Below are positions 15,095 to 56,933 of a DNA stretch of 64,000 nucleotides, piece by piece. This stretch comes from Grifola frondosa (Eukaryota > Basidiomycota > Agaricomycetes > Polyporales > Grifolaceae): the NCBI GenBank assembly GCA_001683735.1, contig LUGG01000057.1:1-64000 (forward strand), given 5' to 3'. How positions within the stretch are numbered: the stretch's first letter is position 1; each line of letters opens with the position of its first letter. Under the pieces are notes generated by a model, which was not told the DNA's origin, ran no database searches, and worked only from the letters and a program-made list of their open reading frames with translations. The position numbers and the translations under genes were made by a program.

Positions 15095-15186
15095 GGTACG
15101 TCTGACGTAGTCTCGGAACCAGCCGTTCTACCCTATCGGACCCCCAATCGGAGAGCGAAAAACATCAGCACGGATCCGGGGTAGAA

Positions 15187-15838
15187 CGTCTGGTGAATTT
15201 GGTATAGAGGGGGAGGGGGGGGTTGTCACATTCACGTGCTCTTTGACGCGTCTGACGCGAGTGTTTACGCGCTGCAATCTTGCGTTTCCGCTGTGTTCCC
15301 GCTTGTTCCCGCCCCTTCTGGTATATATATCTTATCAAAATTAGCACTGCTACGACACTCTGTAAATCCCCTTTCTTCTCTGGCACAACTGTTTATACTT
15401 CTGTGAGGTTTCTTGCTTGCTTTAAGGTAGCATTCAATTCTGGGCTGTTTCACAAACAACTTATATTCATTCTTGCAACCTCTGCACTCCCAGTCAGCAG
15501 GGGTGATGTGCATGCCATCGGGGTCGAGATTGAGAAGTCGAGGAATGAGTGGGAGCTCCGCAAAGGTCGCGCTCGAGCTGCGTTTGCTGCGCCGCCGTGA
15601 GCAGCAAGGCAGGCGGGAGACATACTGCGCTGAAGCCGTCCAGGATGCGAAAACGACGCGGGAGTGTTTCGGGCATGCTAGTACATAAATAATATATATT
15701 TTTGGGCATATTTTCAGTGGAGTTTTGCGAGAGGAACGGAGGAAATGCGCTTGATGTTGAGAGAGATAATGCGCGCTTGACGCGACAGGTCACAAGCGTG
15801 ATGAACCCCCCCCCCCTCTATACCAAATTCACCAGACG
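15187..15838. repeat. inner, near-perfect inverted repeat pair of the outer element
   Basis: 15187-15222 and 15805-15838 are mirror images ending in G-run/C-run tracts. The interior, 15223-15804, has open frames on both strands without recognisable domains. Confidence 0.8.
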
Positions 15839-15840
15839 GT

Positions 15841-15848
15841 ATAGGGTG
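15841..15848. repeat. 8-bp target-site duplication of hAT composite, left
   Basis: ATAGGGTG, repeated at 24597-24604. Eight bases is the characteristic hAT duplication length. Confidence 0.9.
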
Positions 15849-15960
15849 TAGGGCTCCGAGCGTACCGTATACGCATCCGGGCGTGAAATTACGTTGCGTA
15901 ATTCATACGGCGCGTCAAATTACTATCAAATTACGCGTGACTCCGTATACGGGACGGCCC
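15849..15960 (-). repeat. 112-bp hAT 3'-terminal fragment, outer copy
   Basis: Identical to 20228-20339. Read on the minus strand at the centre, this sequence follows directly from the right-hand hAT body and ends in CGGAGCCCTA, so it is best explained as the true 3' terminus of the hAT element. Here it sits, inverted, immediately before the 5' end of the left copy. Confidence 0.75.
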
Positions 15961-16462
15961 TAGGGCTCCGAATCGTAACGTAAATACGCTGTACGGCCTG
16001 TTCGTAAACGGTTACGCTCCGTATCGTACACGGTTCGGAAGTTGCCGAGATGCTACGGGTCCGGTACGCCTTTCCCGTATTGTTCCTGTATCGTTACGGT
16101 TCGACGACCGTATTTACGATTTTCTCGAGCTTTCCAATCCTTTTCCTATGTGCGGTGTTTTCAGTTAAGTTCCTATAATCCTCAATCACGTCTGCCTCTC
16201 GTAAACACCGCGATTGAGCTGAAACCAGTGTGAGATCCACGCTTCTGAAATTTTCGTGTGACATTGTCATTGCCGGCTGCTCTCTAGGTCCGCGTCGTGC
16301 AATGGCAAGTACTATGTAGTCCAATATCGCAAATGTGCTATAACATGTAACAGCAAGATGAAACACAACCGTTTACGATAACTCGAGGCGGGTAATCAAC
16401 ATGGCGTACGTTCGCCCTACTCTATATATTTGAATGATACTGAAGTCTTTGCAGCTCCTTCA

Positions 16463-19400
16463 ATGATGCCTGCTTCACAGTTGAACTCTCATACTGCCCC
16501 CGCCGCCATTTATCAGGTGTCTCAAGGTCACAGCTCGACTTGGGCTCCATCCCGGCCCTCCCTCCACATTCCCGCAGCTTCTTTTGTCTCTCAGAATTCT
16601 TCCGAGAGCGTTGCAACCCTCGATGGATACTATTCCGGCTCATTCGACACTGCATGGCAGACGGTTCATCATGGTCCTCCGTCAGCGCCAACCGAAAGCT
16701 TGTCAATTGCATCTGCTTCCCGGACAAATGAAAATCGATATAGTGCTCTATTACTGACCGGTGATATACACGATATTGACGACGACAGCGATTTTAGTCC
16801 CAGTGGCTCGGAAACTGAAACGGATGATGACAGAGATGTCGGGAACATTCCGAATGATGAGGTGTGTTTCTGAAATGATTCACTCAAGTCTTCGGAGCTG
16901 ATAGCTGGGTCTATCAGGTTGCTGATTGCTTGCCGCGCATGAGGTTGACAATGAACAGTCGGCCGGCTGCCCAGTCTGCACTTGCTGCCATTGAGAAGGA
17001 ATTACCGAAAGGTAGTCGAAAAGGTCGAAAGCGCAAGGCATCTGGAAATCAGGGTGGCACAAAAAAGAAATCCCGCATGGATGTGCAACAGGTGAGCGGT
17101 CAATTCTGGATTGGTAATTTCTATTCACATATATTATAGAACATAATTTCCGGTCCTGCATCTCAACCGCTACCAAATTCTCAGTCTCAAGCCCCGATCA
17201 GTGTCGAAGCAGCTCAGGGTGAACAAATAAGGAAAAGGGTAAGCCCTTCGAGCAATTCGAAAGTTAGTTTATAGTCACTGAAAGTATTTATGCATGCAGC
17301 CGAAGAATCCAATCTATTTATTCTATAAGGAGATCGAGGAGAACCATAGGGCGCATCACAGTAGCTGGAAGCTTGGTGATCAGCTATATATGTGCCGATT
17401 TGGTAAGGAGCACAAAGTTCTCAGAATGACCCCGAGCATGCGAGGATCTACGAACGGTCTAAAAATGCACTTGCAAGCCGTAGATCCGGAATGTACTCGC
17501 TTTACAAGCGACTTCAGCTCATCCATGACCGAAAGCAGATACCCACAGTTACTGAGATACAAGTAGCGAAGGCGGAAAAGCCTCGTGAGTGTCTTCCCTA
17601 CCGTTTGGACTCTCCGATTTCATGCGATAACCATGAGAGTTTATTGCCGGTGAGTGTTAAACTAGATGCTATTGATTTACTTGTATAACATGCAGTTTCG
17701 TAGGGCTCGGAGCCGTTTGACTACAACACATGGGTCCGCCTCGTGTGCGAGTGGATCGCTGCCTGTGATGAACCATTTGATGCAGTCGAACGTCCCGAAT
17801 GGATTAAGATGGTCCGATATGCAAGTCGACGTGGGGATCAGTTGAAGACGCCATCCGCAGACACCGTGAAGAATCACGTTATGACCATGGCTGACGATGT
17901 TGTTGCTTCAATCAAGTCACTAATCAGAGTATACTTTACATTACCATTTATCACAATATGCACTGCTGACTATCGAGATATAGGATCTCGACGCAAAGGT
18001 GTCACTCGCCTTGGACTGTTGGACTTCAAGTAATAAGTGGGCATTTCTATGTATTGTCATGTCATTTGTCACGGAAGACTGGGAGCTTGGTGTGTCATAT
18101 GAGCTGTACTGATCATTCATATCAGTGCTAACTAATGTCAACCATCAGAGGAGACAGTGATTGACTTTCATGAAGTCCAAGGAGAGCACTCGGGCGAGAA
18201 TCTTGCTGAGCTAGTGTGGCAAACAATTGAGACTTATGGCTTGAAAGAGAAGGTATGTGATAGCTCTATTGATTATCATTCAATCTAAATGTACATCGAG
18301 AACCAGGTTCAGGCAGTTGTCGCTGATAACGCATCAAATAATGATACAATGATGTCAGCATTAGAACGAAGGTTTTTAGCAGCTGGAATCATCTTCAATG
18401 CAAGATGGGCACGAATGCGCTGTTTACCGCACACAATACATCTGTCGGCACTTGAGGTAAGGTTTATATAAGTCCATCTGTTCTAATAGTTAAATCTGAT
18501 GTTGTGAACATAGCTTCTAAAAACAGTCGGGCTTGTAAATGGCCCAAAGGCGACCAGTGACCAAAGTCGGCCAAAGCCGAGGCCCAGATCCACGGTGCAT
18601 GAGAAGAACACCATGACGCCGCTACCCCCGGTGCTCCAAGATGCGCCTGACAATTACCAAGAATCCATTCAAGAACCGCTGTCGTCACAAGCAGATGACT
18701 TTCTCGCTCAAGAAAATGATGCCGCTGCTGATGCGAATTCACGATCAGAAAGTGTACCAGATCCAAAGGAGGTCGAAGCGCTGCTGAAGGATCCCATGGA
18801 TATCACGCAGATGGTGAAAGCTATCCAGAAGGTGCGGCATATAATATATACAGTGAATCATGCCTGACGTTGTTGGTAGCTTCGCTTGATCGTTCGGACG
18901 GTACGATCGACTCCGCAAAGGAAGCAACAGTGGCTCGATGAAGTTAACTTATCTTTACGAAGTCTCGGTGATGCTTGCGATCACGCGGAACAATCCCTTA
19001 TGCTGATTCTGGATGTCGTAACACGATGGTCCTCTACACATCAAATGCTGCGTATGTGGATGGCTAATCCAGAGTATGTTTAATTCACTAATGTAATATT
19101 TTATTGCAGGTCGTGCATTGAAATACAAGGATACGATCAAGGCGTTCATCGCAAAACGAGTGGATCTTCGACATCTCGAACTCGACGAGAAGGAATGGGA
19201 CACCATCAAGCTCGTGACTGACTGGCTGTACCTTTTCCGGTCTGCGACAGAAACCATGTCCGCTTCAAAGGAGACTACATTATCTCTTGTTCATACAGTA
19301 TTCCACAGCCTTCAGGACCACCTCAAGAAGGAACTCTCCAAGCTTCCCGCTGAAATGTCAGCGATATTGAGGCAAGGTCTCATCGACGCCCATCGCAAGC

Positions 19401-20149
19401 TCTCCGATTACCACACATATTTCGACGAGTCACCGTATTACATGTGGGCCTGCTGTGAGTATTCATGTTCTGATATTCTAAGCTTAGCTCACTCAGACTG
19501 TTGCTCGCATATATTTTCAGTGCTTGATCCTCGTATCAATTATGGGGGACTTAAAGCTGAAGCACACAAAGATCGAAATGAGCTTAGCCGCGAGGCTTAT
19601 CTATCACAGATAGAGTCCGCAAAGCTCGAACTCAAGCATCATTATCTTCAGAACTATCTCAAGGCAACATCCTCTTCTTCCGAAACAGCATTTGCATCGG
19701 CAACGCCAAACACCCACACACCATCTCGATTTGACTTCCTTGCAAGTTACGCACCCGAGGAAGATCGTTCACCTACAGAGGAGATTGATGAATACTTCAA
19801 GTTGCGGCAGCAGGGTTTCGGAAAGCATATAATCCATCCCCTTCGCTGGTGGAGAGATCACCAGACATCATTTCCCAATCTTTCGAAGCTCGCTCGCGAT
19901 GTCTTGACGATACCCGGTATGCTGGCTACTTTTTTTTGCATCTTATCTTCTCTGACTCAGCTATGAGGCTCCGCCGTTGCTGTCGAGCGTGTTTTCTGTG
20001 GTGGCCGTGATACAATCTCTCTGCGTCGAGCAAGTTTGAAGCCGGAGACCATTCGGAAGTTGATGCTGGTGAAACACAGCTTATTGCTTGCTCGTCGGGA
20101 GTTCAAACGGGCAGTGCGCACAGAAGAAGCTCTGTTATTTAGTACCTAG
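16463..20149 (+). CDS. hAT family transposase, left copy
   Basis: Multi-exon transposase gene. Order of features: a Ser/Thr-rich N-terminus from 16463; a basic stretch (SRKGRKRKASG, near 17010) that may be a nuclear localisation signal; a BED-finger-like region from 17294 (YLFYKEIEENHRAHHSSWKL, then C and H ligand candidates); the RNase H-like core with ALDCWTSSN (about 18014), VVADNASNN (about 18316) and RCLPHTIHLSALE (about 18418); and the C-terminal dimerisation region HPLRWWRDHQTSFPNLSKLA (about 19838) joined over an intron to SAVAVERVF (about 19970). The stop is at 20147-20149. Exons are separated by short GT-AG introns, with intron ends such as the CAG near 20/17/18 kb. Relative to the right copy this copy lacks one G near 17490 and has extra bases near 16811, 17004, 17012 and 18628, so its frames break while those of the right copy join. 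It may be functional if these are sequence errors. Confidence 0.85.
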
Positions 20150-20227
20150 AATACTTCTACATTATATTGCTAGAGAGATTATCGTAAATACGGCCGTCTG
20201 GACGGTTACGAGGATATACGGGCCGTC

Positions 20228-20339
20228 TAGGGCTCCGAGCGTACCGTATACGCATCCGGGCGTGAAATTACGTTGCGTAATTCATACGGCGCGTCAAATT
20301 ACTATCAAATTACGCGTGACTCCGTATACGGGACGGCCC
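20228..20339 (-). repeat. 112-bp hAT 3'-terminal fragment, central copy
   Basis: A direct repeat of 15849-15960, and the spacer at the palindrome centre. Its last eight bases (GACGGCCC) belong also to the start of the inverted arm at 20332. It joins the right copy smoothly but truncates the left copy's 3' end. Confidence 0.8.
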
Positions 20340-20409
20340 GTATATCCTCGTAACCGTCCAGACGGCCGTATTTACGATAATCTCTCTAGCAATATAATGT
20401 AGAAGTATT

Positions 20410-23400
20410 CTAGGTACTAAATAACAGAGCTTCTTCTGTGCGCACTGCCCGTTTGAACTCCCGACGAGCAAGCAATAAGCTGTGTTTCACCAGCATCAAC
20501 TTCCGAATGGTCTCCGGCTTCAAACTTGCTCGACGCAGAGAGATTGTATCACGGCCACCACAGAAAACACGCTCGACAGCAACGGCGGAGCCTCATAGCT
20601 GAGTCAGAGAAGATAAGATGCAAAAAAAAGTAGCCAGCATACCGGGTATCGTCAAGACATCGCGAGCGAGCTTCGAAAGATTGGGAAATGATGTCTGGTG
20701 ATCTCTCCACCAGCGAAGGGGATGGATTATATGCTTTCCGAAACCCTGCTGCCGCAACTTGAAGTATTCATCAATCTCCTCTGTAGGTGAACGATCTTCC
20801 TCGGGTGCGTAACTTGCAAGGAAGTCAAATCGAGATGGTGTGTGGGTGTTTGGCGTTGCCGATGCAAATGCTGTTTCGGAAGAAGAGGATGTTGCCTTGA
20901 GATAGTTCTGAAGATAATGATGCTTGAGTTCGAGCTTTGCGGACTCTATCTGTGATAGATAAGCCTCGCGGCTAAGCTCATTTCGATCTTTGTGTGCTTC
21001 AGCTTTAAGTCCCCCATAATTGATACGAGGATCAAGCACTGAAAATATATGCGAGCAACAGTCTGAGTGAGCTAAGCTTAGAATATCAGAACATGAATAC
21101 TCACAGCAGGCCCACATGTAATACGGTGACTCGTCGAAATATGTGTGGTAATCGGAGAGCTTGCGATGGGCGTCGATGAGACCTTGCCTCAATATCGCTG
21201 ACATTTCAGCGGGAAGCTTGGAGAGTTCCTTCTTGAGGTGGTCCTGAAGGCTGTGGAATACTGTATGAACAAGAGATAATGTAGTCTCCTTTGAAGCGGA
21301 CATGGTTTCTGTCGCAGACCGGAAAAGGTACAGCCAGTCAGTCACGAGCTTGATGGTGTCCCATTCCTTCTCGTCGAGTTCGAGATGTCGAAGATCCACT
21401 CGTTTTGCGATGAACGCCTTGATCGTATCCTTGTATTTCAATGCACGACCTGCAATAAAATATTACATTAGTGAATTAAACATACTCTGGATTAGCCATC
21501 CACATACGCAGCATTTGATGTGTAGAGGACCATCGTGTTACGACATCCAGAATCAGCATAAGGGATTGTTCCGCGTGATCGCAAGCATCACCGAGACTTC
21601 GTAAAGATAAGTTAACTTCATCGAGCCACTGTTGCTTCCTTTGCGGAGTCGATCGTACCGTCCGAACGATCAAGCGAAGCTACCAACAACGTCAGGCATG
21701 ATTCACTGTATATATTATATGCCGCACCTTCTGGATAGCTTTCACCATCTGCGTGATATCCATGGGATCCTTCAGCAGCGCTTCGACCTCCTTTGGATCT
21801 GGTACACTTTCTGATCGTGAATTCGCATCAGCAGCGGCATCATTTTCTTGAGCGAGAAAGTCATCTGCTTGTGACGACAGCGGTTCTTGAATGGATTCTT
21901 GGTAATTGTCAGGCGCATCTTGGAGCACCGGGGTAGCGGCGTCATGGTGTTCTTCTCATGCACCGTGGGATCTGGGCCTCGGCTTTGGCCGACTTTGGTC
22001 ACTGGTCGCCTTTGGGCCATTTACAAGCCCGACTGTTTTTAGAAGCTATGTTCACAACATCAGATTTAACTATTAGAACAGATGGACTTATATAAACCTT
22101 ACCTCAAGTGCCGACAGATGTATTGTGTGCGGTAAACAGCGCATTCGTGCCCATCTTGCATTGAAGATGATTCCAGCTGCTAAAAACCTTCGTTCTAATG
22201 CTGACATCATTGTATCATTATTTGATGCGTTATCAGCGACAACTGCCTGAACCTGGTTCTCGATGTACATTTAGATTGAATGATAATCAATAGAGCTATC
22301 ACATACCTTCTCTTTCAAGCCATAAGTCTCAATTGTTTGCCACACTAGCTCAGCAAGATTCTCGCCCGAGTGCTCTCCTTGGACTTCATGAAAGTCAATC
22401 ACTGTCTCCTCTGATGGTTGACATTAGTTAGCACTGATATGAATGATCAGTACAGCTCATATGACACACCAAGCTCCCAGTCTTCCGTGACAAATGACAT
22501 GACAATACATAGAAATGCCCACTTATTACTTGAAGTCCAACAGTCCAAGGCGAGTGACACCTTTGCGTCGAGATCCTATATCTCGATAGTCAGCAGTGCA
22601 TATTGTGATAAATGGTAATGTAAAGTATACTCTGATTAGTGACTTGATTGAAGCAACAACATCGTCAGCCATGGTCATAACGTGATTCTTCACGGTGTCT
22701 GCGGATGGCGTCTTCAACTGATCCCCACGTCGACTTGCATATCGGACCATCTTAATCCATTCGGGACGTTCGACTGCATCAAATGGTTCATCACAGGCAG
22801 CGATCCACTCGCACACGAGGCGGACCCATGTGTTGTAGTCAAACGGCTCCGAGCCCTACGAAACTGCATGTTATACAAGTAAATCAATAGCATCTAGTTT
22901 AACACTCACCGGCAATAAACTCTCATGGTTATCGCATGAAATCGGAGAGTCCAAACGGTAGGGAAGACACTCACGAGGCTTTTCCGCCTTCGCTACTTGT
23001 ATCTCAGTAACTGTGGGTATCTGCTTTCGGTCATGGATGAGCTGAAGTCGCTTGTAAAGCGAGTACATCTCCGGATCTACGGCTTGCAAGTGCATTTTTA
23101 GACCGTTCGTAGATCCTCGCATGCTCGGGGTCATTCTGAGAACTTTGTGCTCCTTACCAAATCGGCACATATATAGCTGATCACCAAGCTTCCAGCTACT
23201 GTGATGCGCCCTATGGTTCTCCTCGATCTCCTTATAGAATAAATAGATTGGATTCTTCGGCTGCATGCATAAATACTTTCAGTGACTATAAACTAACTTT
23301 CGAATTGCTCGAAGGGCTTACCCTTTTCCTTATTTGTTCACCCTGAGCTGCTTCGACACTGATCGGGGCTTGAGACTGAGAATTTGGTAGCGGTTGAGAT

Positions 23401-24094
23401 GCAGGACCGGAAATTATGTTCTATAATATATGTGAATAGAAATTACCAATCCAGAATTGACCGCTCACCTGTTGCACATCCATGCGGGATTTCTTTTTTG
23501 TGCCACCCTGATTTCCAGATGCCTTGCGCTTTCGACCTTTTCGACTACCTTTCGTAATTCTTCTCAATGGCAGCAAGTGCAGACTGGGCAGCCGGCCGAC
23601 TGTTCATTGTCAACCTCATGCGCGGCAAGCAATCAGCAACCTGATAGACCCAGCTATCAGCTCCGAAGACTTGAGTGAATCATTTCAGAAACACACCTCA
23701 TCATTCGGAATGTTCCCGACATCTCTGTCATCATCCGTTTCAGTTCCGAGCCACTGGGACTAAAATCGCTGTCGTCGTCAATATCGTGTATATCACCGGT
23801 CAGTAATAGAGCACTATATCGATTTTCATTTGTCCGGGAAGCAGATGCAATTGACAAGCTTTCGGTTGGCGCTGACGGAGGACCATGATGAACCGTCTGC
23901 CATGCAGTGTCGAATGAGCCGGAATAGTATCCATCGAGGGTTGCAACGCTCTCGGAAGAATTCTGAGAGACAAAAGAAGCTGCGGGAATGTGGAGGGAGG
24001 GCCGGGATGGAGCCCAAGTCGAGCTGTGACCTTGAGACACCTGATAAATGGCGGCGGGGGCAGTATGAGAGTTCAACTGTGAAGCAGGCATCAT
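20410..24094 (-). CDS. hAT family transposase, right copy
   Basis: The inverted duplicate of the transposase at 16463-20149. It starts at 24094 (MMPASQLNSH), with a stop at 20412-20410. The BED-finger-like exon is longer in one frame here (23266-22871), running from MQPKNPIYLFYKE through DRKQIPTVTEIQVAKAEK, because it has one more G than the left copy. The core motifs ALDCWTSSN, VVADNASNN and HTIHLSALE and the dimerisation motif WWRDHQTSFPNL are all present in the same order. This is the better candidate for an active transposase of the pair, though the exon near 23500-23560 loses bases relative to the left copy. Confidence 0.85.
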
Positions 24095-24596
24095 TGAAGG
24101 AGCTGCAAAGACTTCAGTATCATTCAAATATATAGAGTAGGGCGAACGTACGCCATGTTGATTACCCGCCTCGAGTTATCGTAAACGGTTGTGTTTCATC
24201 TTGCTGTTACATGTTATAGCACATTTGCGATATTGGACTACATAGTACTTGCCATTGCACGACGCGGACCTAGAGAGCAGCCGGCAATGACAATGTCACA
24301 CGAAAATTTCAGAAGCGTGGATCTCACACTGGTTTCAGCTCAATCGCGGTGTTTACGAGAGGCAGACGTGATTGAGGATTATAGGAACTTAACTGAAAAC
24401 ACCGCACATAGGAAAAGGATTGGAAAGCTCGAGAAAATCGTAAATACGGTCGTCGAACCGTAACGATACAGGAACAATACGGGAAAGGCGTACCGGACCC
24501 GTAGCATCTCGGCAACTTCCGAACCGTGTACGATACGGAGCGTAACCGTTTACGAACAGGCCGTACAGCGTATTTACGTTACGATTCGGAGCCCTA

Positions 24597-24604
24597 ATAG
24601 GGTG
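24597..24604. repeat. 8-bp target-site duplication of hAT composite, right
   Basis: ATAGGGTG, identical to 15841-15848. Confidence 0.9.
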
Positions 24605-24713
24605 TGTCCGTGCTGCTGTTTTTCGCTCTCCGGTTTGAACTCCGAAGGGGAGCACGTGATCCCGGTGGCACGCTCACACCCTATGCCGTCTGGTTACGAG
24701 ACTACGTCTGACG

Positions 24714-24721
24714 ATACACTG
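24714..24721. repeat. target-site duplication of outer TIR element, right copy
   Basis: ATACACTG, as at 15087-15094, immediately outside the right inverted repeat. It lies 56 bp past the stop codon of the downstream polymerase gene, so the insertion point is just 3' of that gene. Confidence 0.65.
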
Positions 24722-24776
24722 AGAAGATAAACTACATTCAAGATACAATATCAAGAGTGGAAAAAAGACTAGCCAA

Positions 24777-27604
24777 TTAAGCATCCGCATTCCTTAACGT
24801 AGGGTCGATCCATTCCAACTCGAACAGGTCGAATACTTCTTTCTCAGTCTTTGGGAAGAACACTTTTGAGTCGTATCGGCGAGTTCTGCGAAGAATGTCG
24901 GCATTGATAAGTGATGAAGCGGCCCATTACTTACATGCCGGAACTATCAAACTTCATCCCACTTAGTAAGGCAAGACGATTAGAACGACAGGTAACTTAG
25001 ACGATAATCCGCAACGTACTGTTTGTCCTTTGCCCACTGCCTCAAATCTCTTTGGAACATAATAGAGCCGCTCCTACGCAACGATGATTTTACGGAAATT
25101 CATAGAAAATTCAAGAACACTTACCAGCCAACGACAGCTGTCCAGTACAGCTCGGGGGGACTGAATATCAGGTCAAGCCGTCGGCGAGTACCGCGGTAGA
25201 ATGTAGATGATGGCGGGAGGATGAAGACCGTGAGCGATTTCTCAAGTGAGTCCCAGTGCGTGGTACGGAGAGGGTTATGTGCATGAAATCCCGACAGGTC
25301 TGAGGAGCCCATGAACCGAGATCTCAGCTGGTCCACAAAACAGGGACATACGCATGACATGTGAGACCATCCCTGCAAGATTATGAGTCAGTTCCACGTT
25401 ACTTGTACGTTGAAGGGGTACTAACCGCCCTCATGAAGCCTCTGTACAACACGCTTACACAGCCCCTTGATCTTGGATGCGTCAGGGTGTGTGAAAACCA
25501 TGTCGACGTCGCTGCTTTCCGGCTTGCCTCTCCGGTAACTATATGCGTAACAAAAATGTCGTCAAGATTGCTCCCATGTGTATCGACATAATAAACATAC
25601 CCTCCGACGATGGTAGACACACATCCATGCTCTAGTTGGTCCAGCTCGCGCATGACTACTCGCCCCATCTCCTCGACCTCGTCCCTTGGTATCCTTCAAG
25701 ACGAGTTTCAGGTGGACGTATGAGCAACTGCAGAGCACAAACGCACTTGATCGCTAAGTCCTCCCTCAATCCGAGCGCAATTTTAATCCAAGTGTCTCCG
25801 AGACCTTCGTCGCCTTCGTCCTTCGCATGTCGACGTTTAGACTCCTTTTCTACCTCGACGATGCCGGAGTCAATTGAGGTTTGTGTCTTGGAGTCGACGC
25901 CATAGTACACCTCAAGTTCGTCAAGCGAGCGCAGACCAAGATCGTACAGCCGTTGGGCGGTCGTTGGGCCAATACCATAGATAGACGAAAAGAGGGAGAG
26001 CGCCTGGAAGCGGACGGAGGAACGGATAGTTTCTGAGAGTCGTTATGAACGCATGCACCAAGTAATGAGTTAATCAGCTCACCAGCCTCGTTGATGTGTC
26101 CGCCGTCAATAAATTCCTCAACCTGAAACAGAGATTTTGAGAGGACAGGATGCAAGGAAAAGAGGGCTTACCAGTCCTGTGATTTTCGTACCGATGTAGG
26201 GGAGCTTCTCCACTTGCTTCATGGATGTGATCTTGTGCGGATATGCTGAACCGTCCAGTTGCCTTGTGTAGTCACCAGATGCCACGGACAATGGACGTAC
26301 CTTTGAGTGCTGAGACTGCACGGGCGTAGCTTAGTGCACTTCGCACCTCACCCTCGAGAGCGCGGCTCTGTCGGATTATGTCTAGCTCATGCACAAGTGC
26401 CTGGTTCGGACACACAAGGGGCGATGCACGCTGGCACGCGTAACGCGAGGTATAGTCAAGTTTGGTGATGTCGGTCTCCAGTGGTGGAGAAGGCGGAAGG
26501 AGATAGGCTGGAATTGCTGTTGGGGGCGATGTCGCGGAAGTAGCGGATGCAAGGGATTCCTGTGAGTGACGAAGGGAAGAAGAGGCATACGAAGACGTGG
26601 AGGATGGGGAACACGCGCAAGGTTTGCAGTTACATTCAGGGCAGTTCTGCACTATCGTGTCTTGTAAGTCTTGTATAGCAATGTAGTTGTCGTAAGGTAG
26701 CGAGGAGCCATTTTTGACAGAGTCTCGCAACCATTGCGGGGTAACGACTGCCTTATGTTTCTGATGAACATGGGGATCAGCATTTGCATCTAGAGCAGTC
26801 AAAAGAAACACGAGAAAATATGTTGGTCACAGAAGCACTTTGAAAGCTTAGTAGCTTCTAGTTCTGCTCCGGAATCAATGCTCCCACTGAGAACTGTGTA
26901 ATGGCTTGATAACAATGCCTGAGCACCGACCGAGAAAACTCCTGATACACCGCTTATGTCACTCCACAATGCAGGGCGACAGAGAGAGAGCTATTCCTAT
27001 GAAATACAAACAACGTCATTTACAGACCGCCGCACCCGTTGATGCGAGAATGTAAAATGTCTCTATATGACGCGATTCACGAGCACCTATATGCCACTTC
27101 TCGCTGACCATTTGGATACGCAAACAAGTCGGTACTGCGAGTGAAACTCACCGCGAGTTCCCAAGGAATATGTCTCTCAAGACGTCGTCGCATGCCAATG
27201 GCCGTCACAATGACATCTGCATCCTCGGGCTTGTTGCACAAGCGTTTCGCGTGCTGTTCTGCAAGCCCGAACAATTCGGATATTGCGGAAGTATTCAGCT
27301 TAGCTTGAACAATGAAAAGCTTTACGTTAGGCAATGCCTTGCCCGGCGGCGGAGAGAGCCGCGGCCGTTTAGAAGACCCAGACAACAAGTTCGCCGATGA
27401 CGATGACTGCGATTCGGATTGAGAAGGGAGAGGCGCAGGTCTTTTGAATGGCATTCCAGACGATGTCTGCGGGGCTGAAGATGGTCTCCCACGAGCAGCG
27501 AAAGTGGTGTGGAACCAAGCCGCAGCGTCGCCCCTATTTGTGAGCTGATGCTCAGTATCGCGAGCGACTGTTCTGAAAACAGAACAAGACCGAAATAACA
27601 TCAT
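24777..27604 (-). CDS. POL4: family X DNA polymerase with BRCT domain (Pol lambda/mu/Pol4-like)
   Basis: Gap-filling polymerase of non-homologous end joining and base-excision repair. Read from 27604: a Ser/Pro-rich leader; a BRCT domain (KLFIVQAKLNTSAISELF, then VTPQWLRDSV across an intron at 27076-26793); a Ser/Pro linker with CPECNCKPCAC; an 8-kDa-like helical region (SRALEGEVRSALSYARAVSAL); helix-hairpin-helix segments (KLPYIGTKITGL and FSSIYGIGPTTAQRL); the palm with the metal-binding pair DVD (PESSDVDMVFTHP, about 25510) and the third Asp in RRLDLIFSPP (about 25170); and a C-terminus with TEKEVFDLLELEW, stop at 24777. Exons are joined by short introns. An internal start at 27453 (MPFKRPAPL) would omit a leader that looks weakly mitochondrial. 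Assignment to a specific subfamily is open. Confidence 0.88.
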
Positions 27605-43473: not shown

Positions 43474-44681
43474 ATGAACGCAAAGCATCTTGTACGTTTG
43501 GAGACGCTATTCGATGAAACTGTCGGCTCAGACACTATTTCCTCGCCACAGGCACAAAACGCGATCTCCACGATCACTGTTCATGGGATTGCACACACCA
43601 AGGGCGATGATGCGACGGACTGCCCGTTGCACATGGCACGCGTCGAAATCCCTAAGATGAAGCGCCACATTCACCAACCATGGGAGCCAGATATCAGTCC
43701 TCATGGCTACCCTGAGGTCGCGCCCTCTCGGCTGCCACCCGAAGGAGATTATCGTGTCGAACTCTCTCTGGAGCCGCTCAAACAGACCGTTGGTTGCGAG
43801 GAGAATGGAAATTATGGACGTTGTGGCCATGTGTTCGCTGCTACTCCCACCTCTTGGTCAGATTCTTCCACCGGTCCGTGTCATGCCCCGTCTACGTTGA
43901 CCGGTCGTCTTCCTCCTCTCGCCGTCAAGATAGCTCGCTTTGGTTATAAGCGCGAGCTACTCTTAGAAGCCTCCGTTTATAAAGAGTTGGAACACCTTCA
44001 AGGTGTTTCTATTCCTCGTTGCTATGGACTCTTCGAGGGAGAACTGGAGGATGGTTGGGAGAGAGTCAGCGTGAAGCCAGACTATGAGGGTTGGGACACA
44101 ACCACGGACGAACATGCGCAGATCTCTGATCTCCCACTGGAGTTCAATTCTCTTCCCGAGAAGCAGTATATTAAACTGTGGGACGAGAAGTTGGAGCTTG
44201 CAACACAGGAACTGCGTTTCAATCGGGCTCACAATGGTCCTGGAGGCTCCAACACCGTTATGCTCCTCCTTCTAGAGCGGTTGGGCGGGAGGCTACCACT
44301 TGGTGTTGATCTAGGACCCGAGTTAAGGTGCGTGCGCAGACATACCAGTCCAAGCCAACGACGATGAGCTGACTTAAGGTTTCTTTCGATGTTGTTAGAG
44401 CAGATTTGCATGCGCTTTTCGAAGATATGGCAACGCAGGGCATCGTTTACTATGATATCCGATACTTCAACATTCTACAGCCGCTTCCAAATCCGCCTGG
44501 ATTCGCAGGCATAATATGTCCATATCATCACCGTCGACATTTGTGGAGGATCATCGATTTCTCCCATTATGTGTACAAAGTGGCGTTTACCATGGAATTC
44601 ATGAACGACGACAACGCAAGGAATGTGAACAGGTTCCTTGACTGCTTAGAAGGAGGAGAAATGTTTGAATTTGCGCACTGA
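43474..44681 (+). CDS. protein kinase-like protein, paralogue 1
   Basis: Model: 43474-43491, 43552-44327 and 44399-44681, 359 codons in frame. The 18-nt first exon (MNAKHL) and the acceptor CTCGCCACAG recur at the same place in paralogues 2 and 4. Kinase-fold marks: AVKIARFGYKRELLLEA (beta-3 Lys and helix-C Glu candidates), LLLLERLGG (hinge), YYDIRYFNIL in place of HRDxKxxN (the Asp and Asn kept, His/Arg replaced) and RIIDFSHY in place of DFG. An acidic insert (DYEGWDTTTDEHAQ) lies between the lobes. The N-terminal ~100 residues are rich in Pro and Cys and are not a known domain. It may be a small-molecule or protein kinase, or a pseudokinase. The function is unknown. Confidence 0.75.
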
Positions 44682-45058
44682 TAGATGTGTACGTGTTTCA
44701 TTTGTCCTCCCGATTTACTATGTGACCTCGCCGGCTGAAATAAACGAAATCATTCTTGTAAATACGACGCGATCTGCTAACACGTCGAACGAACTTGCTC
44801 CTAAACCTATAGCTTCACTCGCTGCAAAGTCCCATTTCTATCACAAGAAAAACACCTTTCCAGATGTGAGAACACCATAACTATACATACTTGGCGTACG
44901 ATTGCTAACATGAGTCACCTGTTCTAGAAAGAGCGTGAGATTCAACCACAAAGGTTTCCAAATTTGGTAACGTGTTTTCAAACACGAAGTCAATCGGATG
45001 TTCAAACCGTTCCTACTACTCTTGCCTCTACCATCTTCATTCATAGATAAAGATACAG
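44682..45058. other. spacer between kinase-like paralogues 1 and 2
   Basis: Contains, at about 44932-44982, a block matching in inverted orientation the sequence upstream of paralogue 4 (about 55690-55740; core ACCACAAAGGTTTCCAAATT). It is therefore shared promoter-side sequence of duplicated genes. Confidence 0.6.
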
Positions 45059-46275
45059 ATGCCAATAGTGCCTTTTGTACGTTTCAGAATGCCGTTTTAT
45101 GATTGTTTATGATTGTCTGCTCATATCATTTCCTCGCCACAGGCCCTAAATGCAATCTCTACGATCACCGTTCGCGGGATTGCACACATCAAGGGCGACG
45201 ACAAAACAGACTGCCCATTGCGCATGACACGCGTCGCAATCCCTAATATGAAGCGCAAATTTCACGAATCATCCGACCCGTTCTATTTCAGTCCTGATGG
45301 TCATCGTGAGATCGCGCCCTCACAGCTGCCACCCGAAGGAGATTACCATGTCGAACTCTCTCTTGAGCCGCTCAATCAGACCGTTGGTTGTGAGGAGAAT
45401 GGAAATTATGGACGTTGTGGCCATGTGTTTGCTGCTACTCCCATCTCTTGGTCAGATTCTTCCACCAGTCCGTCTCAGGACCCGTCGACGTTGACCGGTC
45501 GCCTCCCTCCTCTCGCCGTCAAAATAGCTCGCTTTGGCTATAAGCGCGAGCTACTATTGGAGGCCTCCGTTTATAAAGAGTTGGAGCACCTTCAAGGTGT
45601 TTCTATTCCTCGTTTCTATGGACTTTTCGAAGGCGAATTGGAGGAAGGTTGGGAGAGAGTCAGTCTGAAATCTGATTCTGAAGATTGGGGAATAGACACG
45701 GACGAAGATGCGGAGATCTTCTGACCTCCCACGGGAATTCCACGATCTCCCCGCAGAGCAGTATGAGAAACTGTGGGGCGAGAAATTTGAACTTGCGACA
45801 CAGGAACTGCGGTTCAATCGGACCCATAACGGTCCTGGAGGCTCCAACACCGTTATGCTCCTCCTTCTAGAGCGGTTGGGCGGGAGGCTACCACTTGGTG
45901 TTGATCTAGGACCCGAGTTAAGGTGCGTGCGCAGACATACTGGTCCAAGCGGATGACGATGAGCTGACTGACGGTTGTTTTTCACGTTGTAGAGCTGATT
46001 TGCATGCACTTCTCGAGGATATAGCGATACAAGGTGTCTTTTACTACGACATCCGATACTTCAACATTCTGCAGCCGCTTCCAAATCCTCCTGGATTCGC
46101 AGGCATAATATGTCCATATCATCACCGTCGACATCTGTGGAGAATCATCGATTTCTCCCATTATGTGTCCAAGGTGGCGTTTACCATGGAGTACATGAAG
46201 CTCGTCAACGAGTTGAATCTCAACAAGTTCCTTGACTTCTTAGAGGGAGGAGAGATTTATGAAATTCCACATTAG
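45059..46275 (+). CDS. protein kinase-like protein, paralogue 2 (one apparent frameshift)
   Basis: Model: 45059-45076 (MPIVPF), 45143-45922 and 45993-46275. The exon phases equal those of paralogue 1. The total is one base out of frame: where paralogue 1 has CAGATCTCTGAT this copy has GAGATCTTCTGAC at about 45713-45726, so one extra T causes the break between DEDAEIF and SDLPREF. Kinase-like marks are kept: AVKIARFGYKRELLLEA, LLLLERLGG, YYDIRYFNIL, RIIDFSHY. The tail differs from paralogue 1 (MKLVNELNLNKF). It is a tandem duplicate about 400 bp downstream of paralogue 1. Confidence 0.7.
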
Positions 46276-54240: not shown

Positions 54241-54389
54241 CTAGATCGTGCGATGCAGCGAATAAAGTTACAGATTCAGGAGCTAGAAATAGTTGAAGTG
54301 CGTTCGATGTGTTAATCGTATAAAAAAAGGTTCAGCAGGCGAAGTACAAAATAAATCGGGGGGACAAATGAAACACGTCAGGCATATAT

Positions 54390-55594
54390 CTAACAGTGCG
54401 CAAATTCAAACATTTCTCCTCCCTCTAAGCAGCCAAGGAACCTGTTCACATTCCTTGCGTTGTTGTCGTTCATGAATTCCATGGTAAGAGCCACTTTGTA
54501 CACATAATGGGAGAAATCGATGATCCTCCACAAATGCCGACGGTGATGATATGGGCATATCCGACCTGGGAATCCAGGAGGATTTGGAAGCGGCTGCAGA
54601 ATGTTGAAGTATCGGATATCATAGTAAACGACGCCCTGTGTTGCCATGTCTTCGAAAAGTGCATGCAAATCTGCTCTAACGACAGAAAAAGCAACAGAAA
54701 TCAGCTCAGCGTTTCGTCGTATATCTATCTGCACACGCACCTAAGCTCAGATCCTAGATCAACACCGATCGGGAGCCTCCCGCCCAGCCGTTCCAGAAGG
54801 AGGAGCATAACGGTGTTGGAGCCTCCAGGACCATTGTGAGCCCGATTGAACCGAAGTTCCTGTGTTGCAAGCTCCAACTTCTCGTCCCACAGTTTAATAT
54901 ACTGCTCCTCGGGAAGAGAATTGAACTCCAGTGGCAGGTCAGATATCTGCGCACATTCGTCCTTGCCTGTGCCCCAATCTTCATACTCTGATTTCACACT
55001 AACTCTCTCCCAACCGTCCTTCAGTTCTCCTTCGAAGAGTCCATAGCAACGGGGAATAGAAACACCTTGAAGGTGCTCCAACTCTTTATAAACGGAAGCT
55101 TCCAAGAGTAGCTCGCGCTTATAGCCAAAGCGAGCTATCTTGACGGCGAGAGGAGGGAGGCGGCCGGTCAACGTCGACGGGCCATGACACGGACCGGTGG
55201 AAGAATCTGACCAAGAGGTGGGAGTAGCAGCGAACACATGGCCACAACGTCCATAATTTCCATTCTCCTCGCAACCAACGGTCTGTTTGAGCGGATCAAG
55301 AGAGAGTTCGACATGGTAATCTCCTTCGGGTGGCAGCCGAGAGGGCGCGACCTCAGGGTAGCCATGAGGACTAATATTTGGCTCGTATGGTTGGTGAATT
55401 TGGCGCTTCATCTTGGGAATTGCGACACGTGTCATGCGCAATGGGCAGTCCGTCGCATCATCACCCTTGGTATGTGCAATCCCATGAACAGTGATCGTGG
55501 AGATTGCGTTCAAGGCCTGTGGCGAGGAAATTGTGTCTGTGAGCGGACAATCACCGGACGACATCCTCAAACCTACAAAAGGCTCTATGTGCAT
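54390..55594 (-). CDS. protein kinase-like protein, paralogue 4
   Basis: Model: 55594-55577 (MHIEPF), 55516-54741 and 54675-54390, 360 codons in frame. The sequence is nearly the same as paralogue 1: AVKIARFGYKRELLLEA, LLLLERLGG, YYDIRYFNIL, RIIDFSHY, with one additional C-terminal residue. Exon lengths 18/776/286 against 18/776/283 in paralogue 1 confirm the gene structure. Paralogues 1 and 4 form a large inverted repeat about 9 kb apart, with the GCDH gene and paralogues 2 and 3 between them. Confidence 0.78.
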
Positions 55595-56933
55595 CTTGTT
55601 CTGTAAATATTGAAGTGGAAGCAAGAGCAGCAGGAACGGTTTGGACGTCTGTCTTCGATTCTGTTCGATTCGATCATGTGAGGACAAGCACATTACCAAA
55701 TTTGGAAACCTTTGTGGTCGAATCTCACGCTCTTCCTCGAACAAACATCAGGACTTCGATGGGAGTCTGATATGGGTTTAAATAGCTATACAATTTAAAG
55801 CAGGCACATCAAGTATATCAACATGATAAGCCAGTATAGATAACCTTGTATGTTATGCTAGGTTTGTTCAAGTTGAAAATATAATTCATGCTTGAAACAA
55901 ATGTTAATATCGTATCAGTGCTCTGACACTTGATCTAGGGGTATCAGAAAATTATGTCTAGGATGCTAATATCATTGCCAACTCCGTTTATAATCTATGC
56001 TGGCAATGATATCAATGACAGTTTAAGTCACTAGGTGATGGTATCTGTGTCGGGGATAGCAAGCAAAAACTCCCAGTTTACTGAAGACAACGATGGCAAT
56101 AGCTGACTGAAATGTACCAAAGTGCCAGAGTTCATAAGCACTGACCTTATTGTCAGAGATGATATGCTGTCGCAAGCTGTGATCCCTTTAAATGGCACTA
56201 CAGTGACCAAGCCGAATGTGGATTGCGTGCCAGTAAGCACACACAGTTTATAGAAGTTAGTGGAGATATGTGCTGTTACTTATCGACTTAAACATCAGAT
56301 AGCCGGTCTCGAATCAGTTCCATCCGATTGTTAACGGTGTTGGTAGTTCAACACATTTTGATCAGGATTACCGGGTATTGTCCTTGAATTATCCATGGCT
56401 GGTCTGTAAAGCTGCATAGGATATTTCCAAGCATTCTGATGTCGACAGAGAGATCCAGCATAACGTATACGATTTTGACAATATTCAATCAGACGCGGAG
56501 TGATATTCTAATGCATGTTTCCGACATACACATTTAAATCAAAGCACATCCTATAGCCGATCTCCAATCCGATTGTTAACGGTGTTGGTAGTTCAACACA
56601 TTTTGATCAGAATTACGGGTAATTGTCCTTGAATTATCCATGGCTGGTCTGTAAAGCTGCATAGGATATTTCAAGCATTCTGATTCGACAGAGAGATCCA
56701 GCATAATGTATACGATTTTGACAATATTCAATCAGACACGGAGTGATATTCTAATGCATGTTTCCGACGTACACATTCAAATCGAAGCACATCTTATAAC
56801 GGGTTCAATGAATTTTCATAGGATTATTGACATAATCGTGTGCAAAAGAGTAGGTAACAGGATTGGTGCAACGTGCAACAGATCCCCCGACAGCCATCAG
56901 GTCATTAGGGAGGTGCCAGCCCGGCAGCCGCTT
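55595..56933. other. AT-rich intergenic region containing a tandem duplication
   Basis: About 1.3 kb with no supported gene. 55690-55740 is the conserved upstream block of paralogue 4. 56299-56798 is the tandem duplication listed separately. Confidence 0.55.
56299..56798. repeat. tandem duplication, two ~250-bp units
   Basis: Units 56299-56552 and 56553-56798 match closely (AACGGTGTTGGTAGTTCAAC, GAATTATCCATGGCTGG, GACAGAGAGATCCAGCATAA). They differ by a few substitutions and single-base indels. Neither unit codes for protein. Confidence 0.9.

What the first reader, a model, noticed from the sequence alone, without database searches (positions are those of the whole stretch)
15841..24604. An 8.7-kb palindromic hAT composite inserted as a single unit
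Two ~4.26-kb hAT copies face each other around a 112-bp centre. The outermost ends are hAT termini (TAGGGCTCCGA) and both are flanked by the same 8-bp duplication ATAGGGTG. A duplication outside both arms means that the whole palindrome was cut and pasted as one macrotransposon. Perfect long palindromes are usually unstable, so the insertion should be recent.
Basis: partly seen in the sequence, partly recalled or inferred. Interest (0 to 1): 0.9.

Follow-up and report, generated by a model that had tools for sequence, protein, structure and literature searches.

The report
A jumping gene inserted into itself
In a mushroom genome, a hAT-type jumping gene appears to have jumped into its own copy and left an 8.7-kb mirror-image structure, a fungal counterpart of the chromosome-breaking "double Ds" of maize that could break the chromosome or silence the transposon.

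Summary
A 112-bp piece carrying the hAT 3' end (15849-15960) is followed by a 4,267-bp arm, a second identical 112-bp piece, and a reverse arm; the last two form one complete 4,369-bp hAT element (20228-24596, minus strand). The outer 8-bp duplication ATAGGGTG is a true target-site duplication: 12 of 15 other host-repeat loci carry it once. A second, inner 8-bp duplication (GACGGCCC) abuts the left arm's 5' end and the central 3' end. It shows that a hAT inserted into itself, in opposite orientation, 112 bp from the 3' end. This is the layout of maize "double Ds", with the central 104 bp inverted. A model with that inversion reproduces window 15700-24800 with 0 mismatches and six one-base gaps. 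The outer duplication needs only the first, ordinary insertion, so the "macrotransposon" reading is unnecessary. Inversion between the arms, assembly choice, or a one-step sister-chromatid transposition would all give the same sequence. No other full-length copy was found in the genome (Grifola frondosa by inference). Expected effects, both inferred: chromosome breakage and hairpin-RNA silencing.

The parts
15841..15848 (.). outer target-site duplication ATAGGGTG, left copy
   Evidence: present once in 12 of 15 other host-repeat loci
24597..24604 (.). outer target-site duplication ATAGGGTG, right copy
15849..15960 (-). 112-bp 3'-terminal piece of the outer hAT copy (TIR TAGGGCTCCGAGCG... to GACGGCCC)
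   Evidence: identical to 20228-20339; eight other genome matches at 91-95%
15953..15960 (+). inner target-site duplication GACGGCCC, next to the 5' end of the left arm
15961..20227 (+). left arm: hAT 5' end, transposase gene on + strand, up to inner target site; lacks a 3' terminus in native orientation
20220..20227 (-). inner target-site duplication (GGGCCGTC, reverse of GACGGCCC), next to the central 3' end
20228..20331 (-). 104-bp unpaired centre (hAT 3' end), inverted relative to a plain nested insertion
20228..24596 (-). complete 4,369-bp hAT element (3' end at 20228, 5' end at 24596)
18014..20149 (+). left-arm transposase region (with introns) holding DCWT, ADNASN, CLPHTIH and AVERVF motifs; stop codon ends 78 bp before the centre
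   Evidence: motif roles are recalled hAT knowledge
20593..21441 (-). 282-aa open frame of the right-arm transposase with the hAT dimerisation domain PF05699
   Evidence: E 5.2e-11
15107..15848 (+). left part of the host repeat (about 850 bp, inverted repeats near its ends) into which the first hAT inserted
24605..24705 (+). right part of the same host repeat

Best explanation
A hAT inserted into its own copy at this site, so the palindrome was built in place and did not arrive whole. Step 1 (shown by the sequence): a complete 4.37-kb hAT inserted in minus orientation into a copy of an ~850-bp repeat, duplicating ATAGGGTG. Step 2 (the insertion is shown by the inner duplication; its source is inferred): a second, identical copy, most likely the sister-chromatid copy of the same element, inserted into the first in opposite orientation 112 bp from its 3' end, duplicating GACGGCCC. 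That is the 'double Ds' layout. Step 3 (inferred): the central 104 bp between the ~4.26-kb inverted arms was inverted, by recombination between the arms or by an arbitrary assembly choice. Expected behaviour (inferred): 3' and 5' ends in direct orientation 112 bp apart (15849 and 15961) invite aberrant sister-chromatid transposition and chromosome breakage as in double Ds. The convergent transposase genes, whose stop lies 78 bp from the centre, would yield hairpin RNA on read-through and so could silence the family. The confidence given is for self-insertion in place by any route; rival 1 is a different route to the same result and overlaps with it.
For: The model with inverted centre matches window 15700-24800 with 0 mismatches and six one-base gaps, the arms' own differences. 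The uninverted nested form has 20 gap events and 12 mismatches, and its 14 extra gap events lie at 20228-20332; the same-orientation nested form has 683 mismatches and 659 gap events. Inner octamer GACGGCCC directly abuts the 5' end (15953-15960) and, inverted, the central 3' end (20220-20227), and occurs once in the complete element. Outer octamer occurs once at the empty site in 12 of 15 other host-repeat loci. No full-length copy other than these two was found in the 39-Mb assembly. Arms have 0 substitutions. Contrast: on contig C1 two inverted hAT copies of another family each carry their own duplication (CTCATATA, GCAGCAGG) and are separate insertions. Argonaute (Piwi), RdRP and Dicer-dimer domains are present in the genome.
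Against: No reads were available, so the orientation of the central 104 bp rests on the assembly. The inversion step leaves no scar, so it cannot be proven from sequence. The open frames of the two arms differ in at least two places, so at least one arm, and perhaps each, is frame-broken as assembled; present activity is unknown. No transcript, small-RNA or breakage data exist here. Plain nesting in opposite orientation, the exact double-Ds form, was tested and fits worse.
Confidence: 0.8

Rival explanations
1. One-step alternative transposition: the 5' end of the element on one sister chromatid and the 3' end of the element on the other were excised together and inserted into the first chromatid's own element at GACGGCCC. 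This gives the observed order directly, with no later inversion, and would leave an empty site on the other chromatid. (A different route to self-insertion; overlaps with the best explanation's confidence.)
For: The simulated product is letter for letter the same as the nested-plus-inverted product (flip==h2 True). Sister chromatid transposition giving inverted duplications is documented for Ac/Ds (PMC3744419 and PMC8225341, passages).
Against: In Ac/Ds the documented reaction uses directly oriented ends of closely linked elements, and end competence depends on strand-specific hemimethylation (PMC3744419 passages); I infer that this disfavours joining the two ends of one element across sisters. 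Whether this fungal hAT obeys that rule is unknown.
Confidence: 0.2
2. The whole palindrome is a macrotransposon that formed elsewhere and was cut and pasted here as one unit.
For: The outer 8-bp duplication flanks the whole unit and the outer ends are a 3' end and a 5' end.
Against: A single ordinary insertion followed by self-insertion explains the same duplication. No other copy of the composite was found. The left outer end retains 112 bp of the 3' region whereas 8 of 8 shorter relatives keep 434 bp, so its cis sequence may be incomplete; that the longer stretch is needed was not tested.
Confidence: 0.06
3. Assembly artefact: only one hAT exists here and the palindrome was created by the assembler or by inverted-repeat read chimeras. 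(A wrong orientation of the centre alone is counted under the best explanation.)
For: All six arm differences are single-base indels. Near-identical repeats elsewhere in the assembly also show one-base indels, for example L033 against L034 with 0 substitutions and 3 one-base indels in 1.6 kb, which suggests consensus error in repeats. Orientation of a 104-bp centre between 4.26-kb repeats cannot be decided by shorter reads.
Against: A hairpin-read chimera would mirror the flanks too, yet the palindrome stops exactly at hAT ends, with an inner 8-bp duplication of the right length and distinct flanks on the two sides. An artefact would not be expected to invent a target duplication. Other near-identical pairs also differ by substitutions, so the indel argument is not clean.
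Confidence: 0.12
4. Two independent hAT insertions next to each other in opposite orientation.
For: Such a pair exists in this genome (contig C1).
Against: Here no other DNA separates the copies, neither copy has its own pair of duplications in the host repeat, and the inner junctions lie inside hAT sequence.
Confidence: 0.02

Closest known systems
Maize double Ds (chromosome-breaking Ds; layout recalled, consequences seen in passages of PMC3260210 and PMC10615209)
   Same: hAT element inserted into an identical copy in opposite orientation, with an 8-bp duplication at the inner site, direct and inverted pairs of ends close together.
   Different: Fungal family, not shown to be Ac/Ds; both arms are nearly full-length transposase-bearing copies; the central 104 bp is inverted; breakage not observed.
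Ac/Ds alternative transposition products: sister chromatid transposition, composite insertions (PMC3744419 and PMC8225341 passages; PMC4270019 abstract and introduction)
   Same: Inverted duplication, with 8-bp duplications at rearrangement junctions.
   Different: No flanking host DNA was duplicated: the target lies inside the element itself; only one element would be needed.
Mu killer of maize (PMC3440606, abstract and passages)
   Same: Inverted duplication of a transposase gene that could give a hairpin RNA.
   Different: Mutator element and a partial duplication; silencing is demonstrated there and only inferred here; that paper itself disputes the read-through hairpin model.
hAT-derived inverted repeats at Atlantic cod inversion breakpoints (PMC12368964, passages)
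   Same: Inverted arrangements of hAT copies linked to chromosome inversions.
   Different: MITE arrays at breakpoints, not one full-length self-insertion.

Membership tests
hAT superfamily | 8-bp target-site duplication | tested here: met
   outer ATAGGGTG, single at 12 of 15 other host-repeat loci; inner GACGGCCC; 7 of 8 shorter relatives flanked on both sides by GTGCAAAC
hAT superfamily | short terminal inverted repeats | tested here: met
   TAGGGCTCCGA / TCGGAGCCCTA, 11 bp
hAT superfamily | transposase with hAT C-terminal dimerisation domain | tested here: met
   PF05699 E 5.2e-11, 42.6 bits against cut-off 21.4
hAT superfamily | D, D, E catalytic motifs (recalled) | tested here: met
   DCWT, ADNASN and AVERVF in both arms; residue roles recalled, not tested
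double Ds type structure | one copy inserted in an identical copy, opposite orientation, with an inner 8-bp duplication | tested here: met
   given the inverted centre
double Ds type structure | inner copy has both its ends in native orientation | tested here: not met
   central 104 bp is inverted as assembled
double Ds type structure | transposase-dependent chromosome breakage | not testable with these tools
   needs cytology or genetics
Ac/Ds element family of maize | sequence kinship to Ac | not tested
   best match is a G. frondosa protein named 'putative AC transposase', a source's label; membership not claimed
Mu killer type silencing locus | inverted duplication of the transposase gene | tested here: met
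Mu killer type silencing locus | transcript, small RNAs and silencing in trans | not testable with these tools
   no expression data; Piwi, RdRP and Dicer-dimer domains present in the genome
macrotransposon | the composite moves as one unit | tested here: inconclusive
   no second copy found; outer duplication compatible but not diagnostic

The most novel reading that the evidence does not exclude
A single element copied itself into a palindrome in one transposase reaction by using its 5' end from one sister chromatid and its 3' end from the other, with its own body as target. The product is at once a double-Ds-like chromosome breaker and a hairpin 'killer' locus that now silences the family, which could explain why the only full-length copies found in the genome sit inside it.
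Probability: 0.15. Interest if true: 0.75.

Novelty: new variant of a known kind. Interest (0 to 1): 0.5.

Why it matters
Double Ds, the structure behind McClintock's breaking Ds (PMC10615209, passage), is scarce: a survey of the maize B73 genome detected no chromosome-breaking double Ds and suggested that nested Ds are selected against, although it did report one Ds-l4 nested in a Ds-l3 (PMC3260210, section read). A natural case in a mushroom, with both target duplications intact and two near-full-length copies, would let one test outside plants whether hAT self-insertion breaks chromosomes and whether a self-made inverted copy silences its family by RNA interference. It also gives a concrete case in which an outer target duplication around a palindrome need not mean that the palindrome moved as a unit.

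Tried and rejected
Rejected: fold-back or hairpin-read palindrome, because the flanks differ and the palindrome ends exactly at hAT termini with an inner 8-bp duplication. Rejected: two adjacent independent insertions. Rejected: same-orientation nesting (683 mismatches, 659 gap events). Looked for other palindromic hAT pairs: the 27 hAT-domain matches include, by eye, four opposite-strand pairs within 12 kb (C48, C1, C57, C6). Of these, only C48 was seen to be a self-nested palindrome. C1 is two separate insertions. The stretches read of C57 (its first 10 kb of 23 kb) and C6 (17 kb) gave only inverted repeats of about 300 to 454 bp, and those elements were not analysed further. Led nowhere: Pfam scan of P0001 (0 families at E 0.001) and its search against solved structures (one match, E 0.27, an RNase P). 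Dating by arm identity was abandoned, because gene conversion between palindrome arms would keep them identical (recalled). The nested-plus-inverted and one-step routes could not be separated: their products are identical. Literature: no fungal double-Ds-like case was seen in the listed titles and abstract starts (20 of 601 papers; 20 of 114; 15 of 39; 15 of 73; 5 of 5; 20 of 83; 4 of 4). The library holds open-licence papers only, and three double-Ds or chromosome-breakage papers that I tried are not in it, so the double-Ds layout is recalled and its consequences come from citing papers.
Full report
What is there. Searches confirm two inverted arms, 15961-20227 (4,267 bp) and 20332-24596 (4,265 bp), with 104 bp between them. 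The arms have 0 substitutions and six single-base indels. The outer 8-bp repeat ATAGGGTG flanks 15849-24596. The unit is therefore: 3'-end piece, left arm, 3'-end piece, right arm. The last two together are one complete 4,369-bp hAT in minus orientation. Four termini exist: three face left (15849, 15961, 20228) and one faces right (24596). Simple insertions give equal numbers of left-facing and right-facing ends, so an inversion or a non-standard transposition must be involved, unless the assembly misplaced the centre.

Outer insertion. The flanks belong to an ~850-bp repeat with inverted repeats near its ends. All 15 non-self matches to the right flank were fetched and aligned to the joined flanks. 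In 12 of 15 the site is uninterrupted and holds ATAGGGTG once; in L053 and L054 only part of the left flank aligns with it. L050 has a 10-bp deletion at the site, L040 has its left flank 659 bp further off (another insertion close by), and L052 matches on the right side only. The outer duplication is real.

Inner insertion. The octamer GACGGCCC (bases 105-112 from the 3' end of the element) stands directly before the 5' end of the left arm (15953-15960). Its reverse stands directly before the central 3' end (20220-20227), and it stands once more in its native place (20332-20339). This is the footprint of a hAT end pair inserting into hAT DNA. A simulated product, in which an element in minus orientation receives a second copy in plus orientation at this octamer and the 104 bp between the arms is inverted, fits 15700-24800 with 0 mismatches and six one-base gaps. 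Without the inversion the fit has 20 gap events and 12 mismatches; with same-orientation nesting it has 683 mismatches and 659 gap events. The right-hand element served as the template for the model, so the arms' own six indels are the only residue.

Route. Three histories give the same letters: nested insertion followed by recombination between the arms; nested insertion whose centre the assembler placed in the other orientation; and a one-step reaction using the 5' end of one sister chromatid and the 3' end of the other (products identical). I favour nested insertion first because it uses one ordinary reaction, and because long inverted repeats recombine readily (recalled). The one-step route has precedents of its kind in maize (PMC3744419 passages, PMC8225341 passages, PMC4270019 introduction), but maize rules on end competence count against it.

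Copy number. In the 39.06-Mb assembly (64 contigs) the left arm finds 29 matches: the two arms here, plus partial matches only (the tool calls its counts lower bounds). The 112-bp piece finds 10 matches, two here and eight elsewhere. Those eight lie in shorter relatives that keep 434 bp of the 3' end at 84.6-85.8% identity and, in seven of eight, the first 331 bp of the 5' end at 87-89%; in L037 the 5' part is split into pieces of 85% and 95% and its first 20 bp are missing. By their length of 1.0-1.8 kb I take them for nonautonomous copies. Seven of the eight have the same 12 bp on each side, including the duplication GTGCAAAC, so they look like one insertion multiplied inside a larger repeat. 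Six of these seven, compared with 300-bp flanks, differ by 0 to 143 substitutions per pair, so that repeat is partly diverged. One further 5' fragment lies on C6 (L038). No full-length copy outside the composite was found, which points to the sister or self copy as the source of the second insertion.

Organism. Contig C48 is 74,504 bp long. The best protein match, P0001, is named "putative AC transposase [Grifola frondosa]" and comes from a contig of 74,504 bp. I infer that the window is from Grifola frondosa (Basidiomycota, Polyporales). P0001 covers 39% of the 282-aa query at 98% identity; the other five matches are at 33-39% identity.

Transposase. A 282-aa open frame holds the hAT dimerisation domain. 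DCWT, ADNASN, CLPHTIH and AVERVF occur in both arms (their roles are recalled). The splice structure was not determined. The open frames of the two arms differ in at least two places (147 against 156 aa at the start of the gene, 90 against 131 aa from the frame beginning MQPKNP), so at least one arm, and perhaps each, is frame-broken as assembled. Near-identical repeats elsewhere in this assembly also show one-base indels: L033 against L034 has 0 substitutions and 3 indels, L032 against L033 has 3 and 3, L032 against L034 has 3 and 2. The host repeat against L041-L044 has 3-4 substitutions and 5-7 indels, and against L045-L048 15-31 and 6-10. The arm indels may therefore be consensus errors, but this was not proven.

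What it would do. All of this is inferred. Ends in direct orientation 112 bp apart resemble the layout for which maize work reports bridges and breaks (PMC3744419, passages). The transposase genes converge on the centre, the left stop codon ends 78 bp before it, and read-through would give an RNA that folds on itself. Piwi, RdRP and Dicer-dimer domains are encoded in the genome. A review states that elements transposing into copies of their own family, or holding inverted duplications, can trigger silencing (PMC10801548, passages). Against an easy analogy, the Mu killer paper reports short antisense transcripts in effective silencers and says that they cannot form large hairpins, while leaving room for minor longer transcripts (PMC3440606, abstract and passages).

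Controls. Another opposite-strand hAT pair, C1:2406435-2409773 and 2420090-2423419, has 99.2% identical arms, but each copy has its own 8-bp duplication and 10.3 kb of other DNA lies between them. It shows what two ordinary insertions look like here.

Verdict. The structure is a double-Ds-like self-insertion with an inverted centre: a new variant of a known kind. It is of moderate interest, higher if breakage or silencing is shown.

Noticed in passing
G000 contig C1:2406435-2409773 and 2420090-2423419 (L055, L056): Two nearly identical (99.2%) 3.3-kb hAT elements of another family in opposite orientation, each with its own 8-bp duplication, with an inverted pair of 31-bp-unit tandem arrays between them.
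   Followed up: partly
L030-L036: Seven 1.0-1.8-kb relatives of this hAT share the same 12-bp flanks and the duplication GTGCAAAC, so they look like one insertion multiplied within a larger repeat; one lies near a contig start (C26:588-1615).
   Followed up: partly
L050 (G000:C28:151077-152096): One copy of the host repeat has a 10-bp deletion at the hAT target octamer; it could be an excision scar or chance.
   Followed up: no
L037 (G000:C22:31500-34500): A shorter hAT relative whose 5' part is split by about 730 bp, with matches to the host repeat family within it, and with the first 20 bp of its 5' end missing.
   Followed up: no
window 43529-46271 and 54379-55539: A ~1.6-kb tandem duplication (85-91%) and an inverted copy 81-92% alike about 10 kb away: another repeated unit in the window.
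   Followed up: no
window 56322-56798: A ~243-bp tandem duplication, 95-96% identical.
   Followed up: no
L038 (G000:C6:1941500-1949500): A 5' fragment of this hAT (96% and 92% identical pieces) interrupted by about 5.8 kb of other DNA, with no 3' end found there.
   Followed up: no
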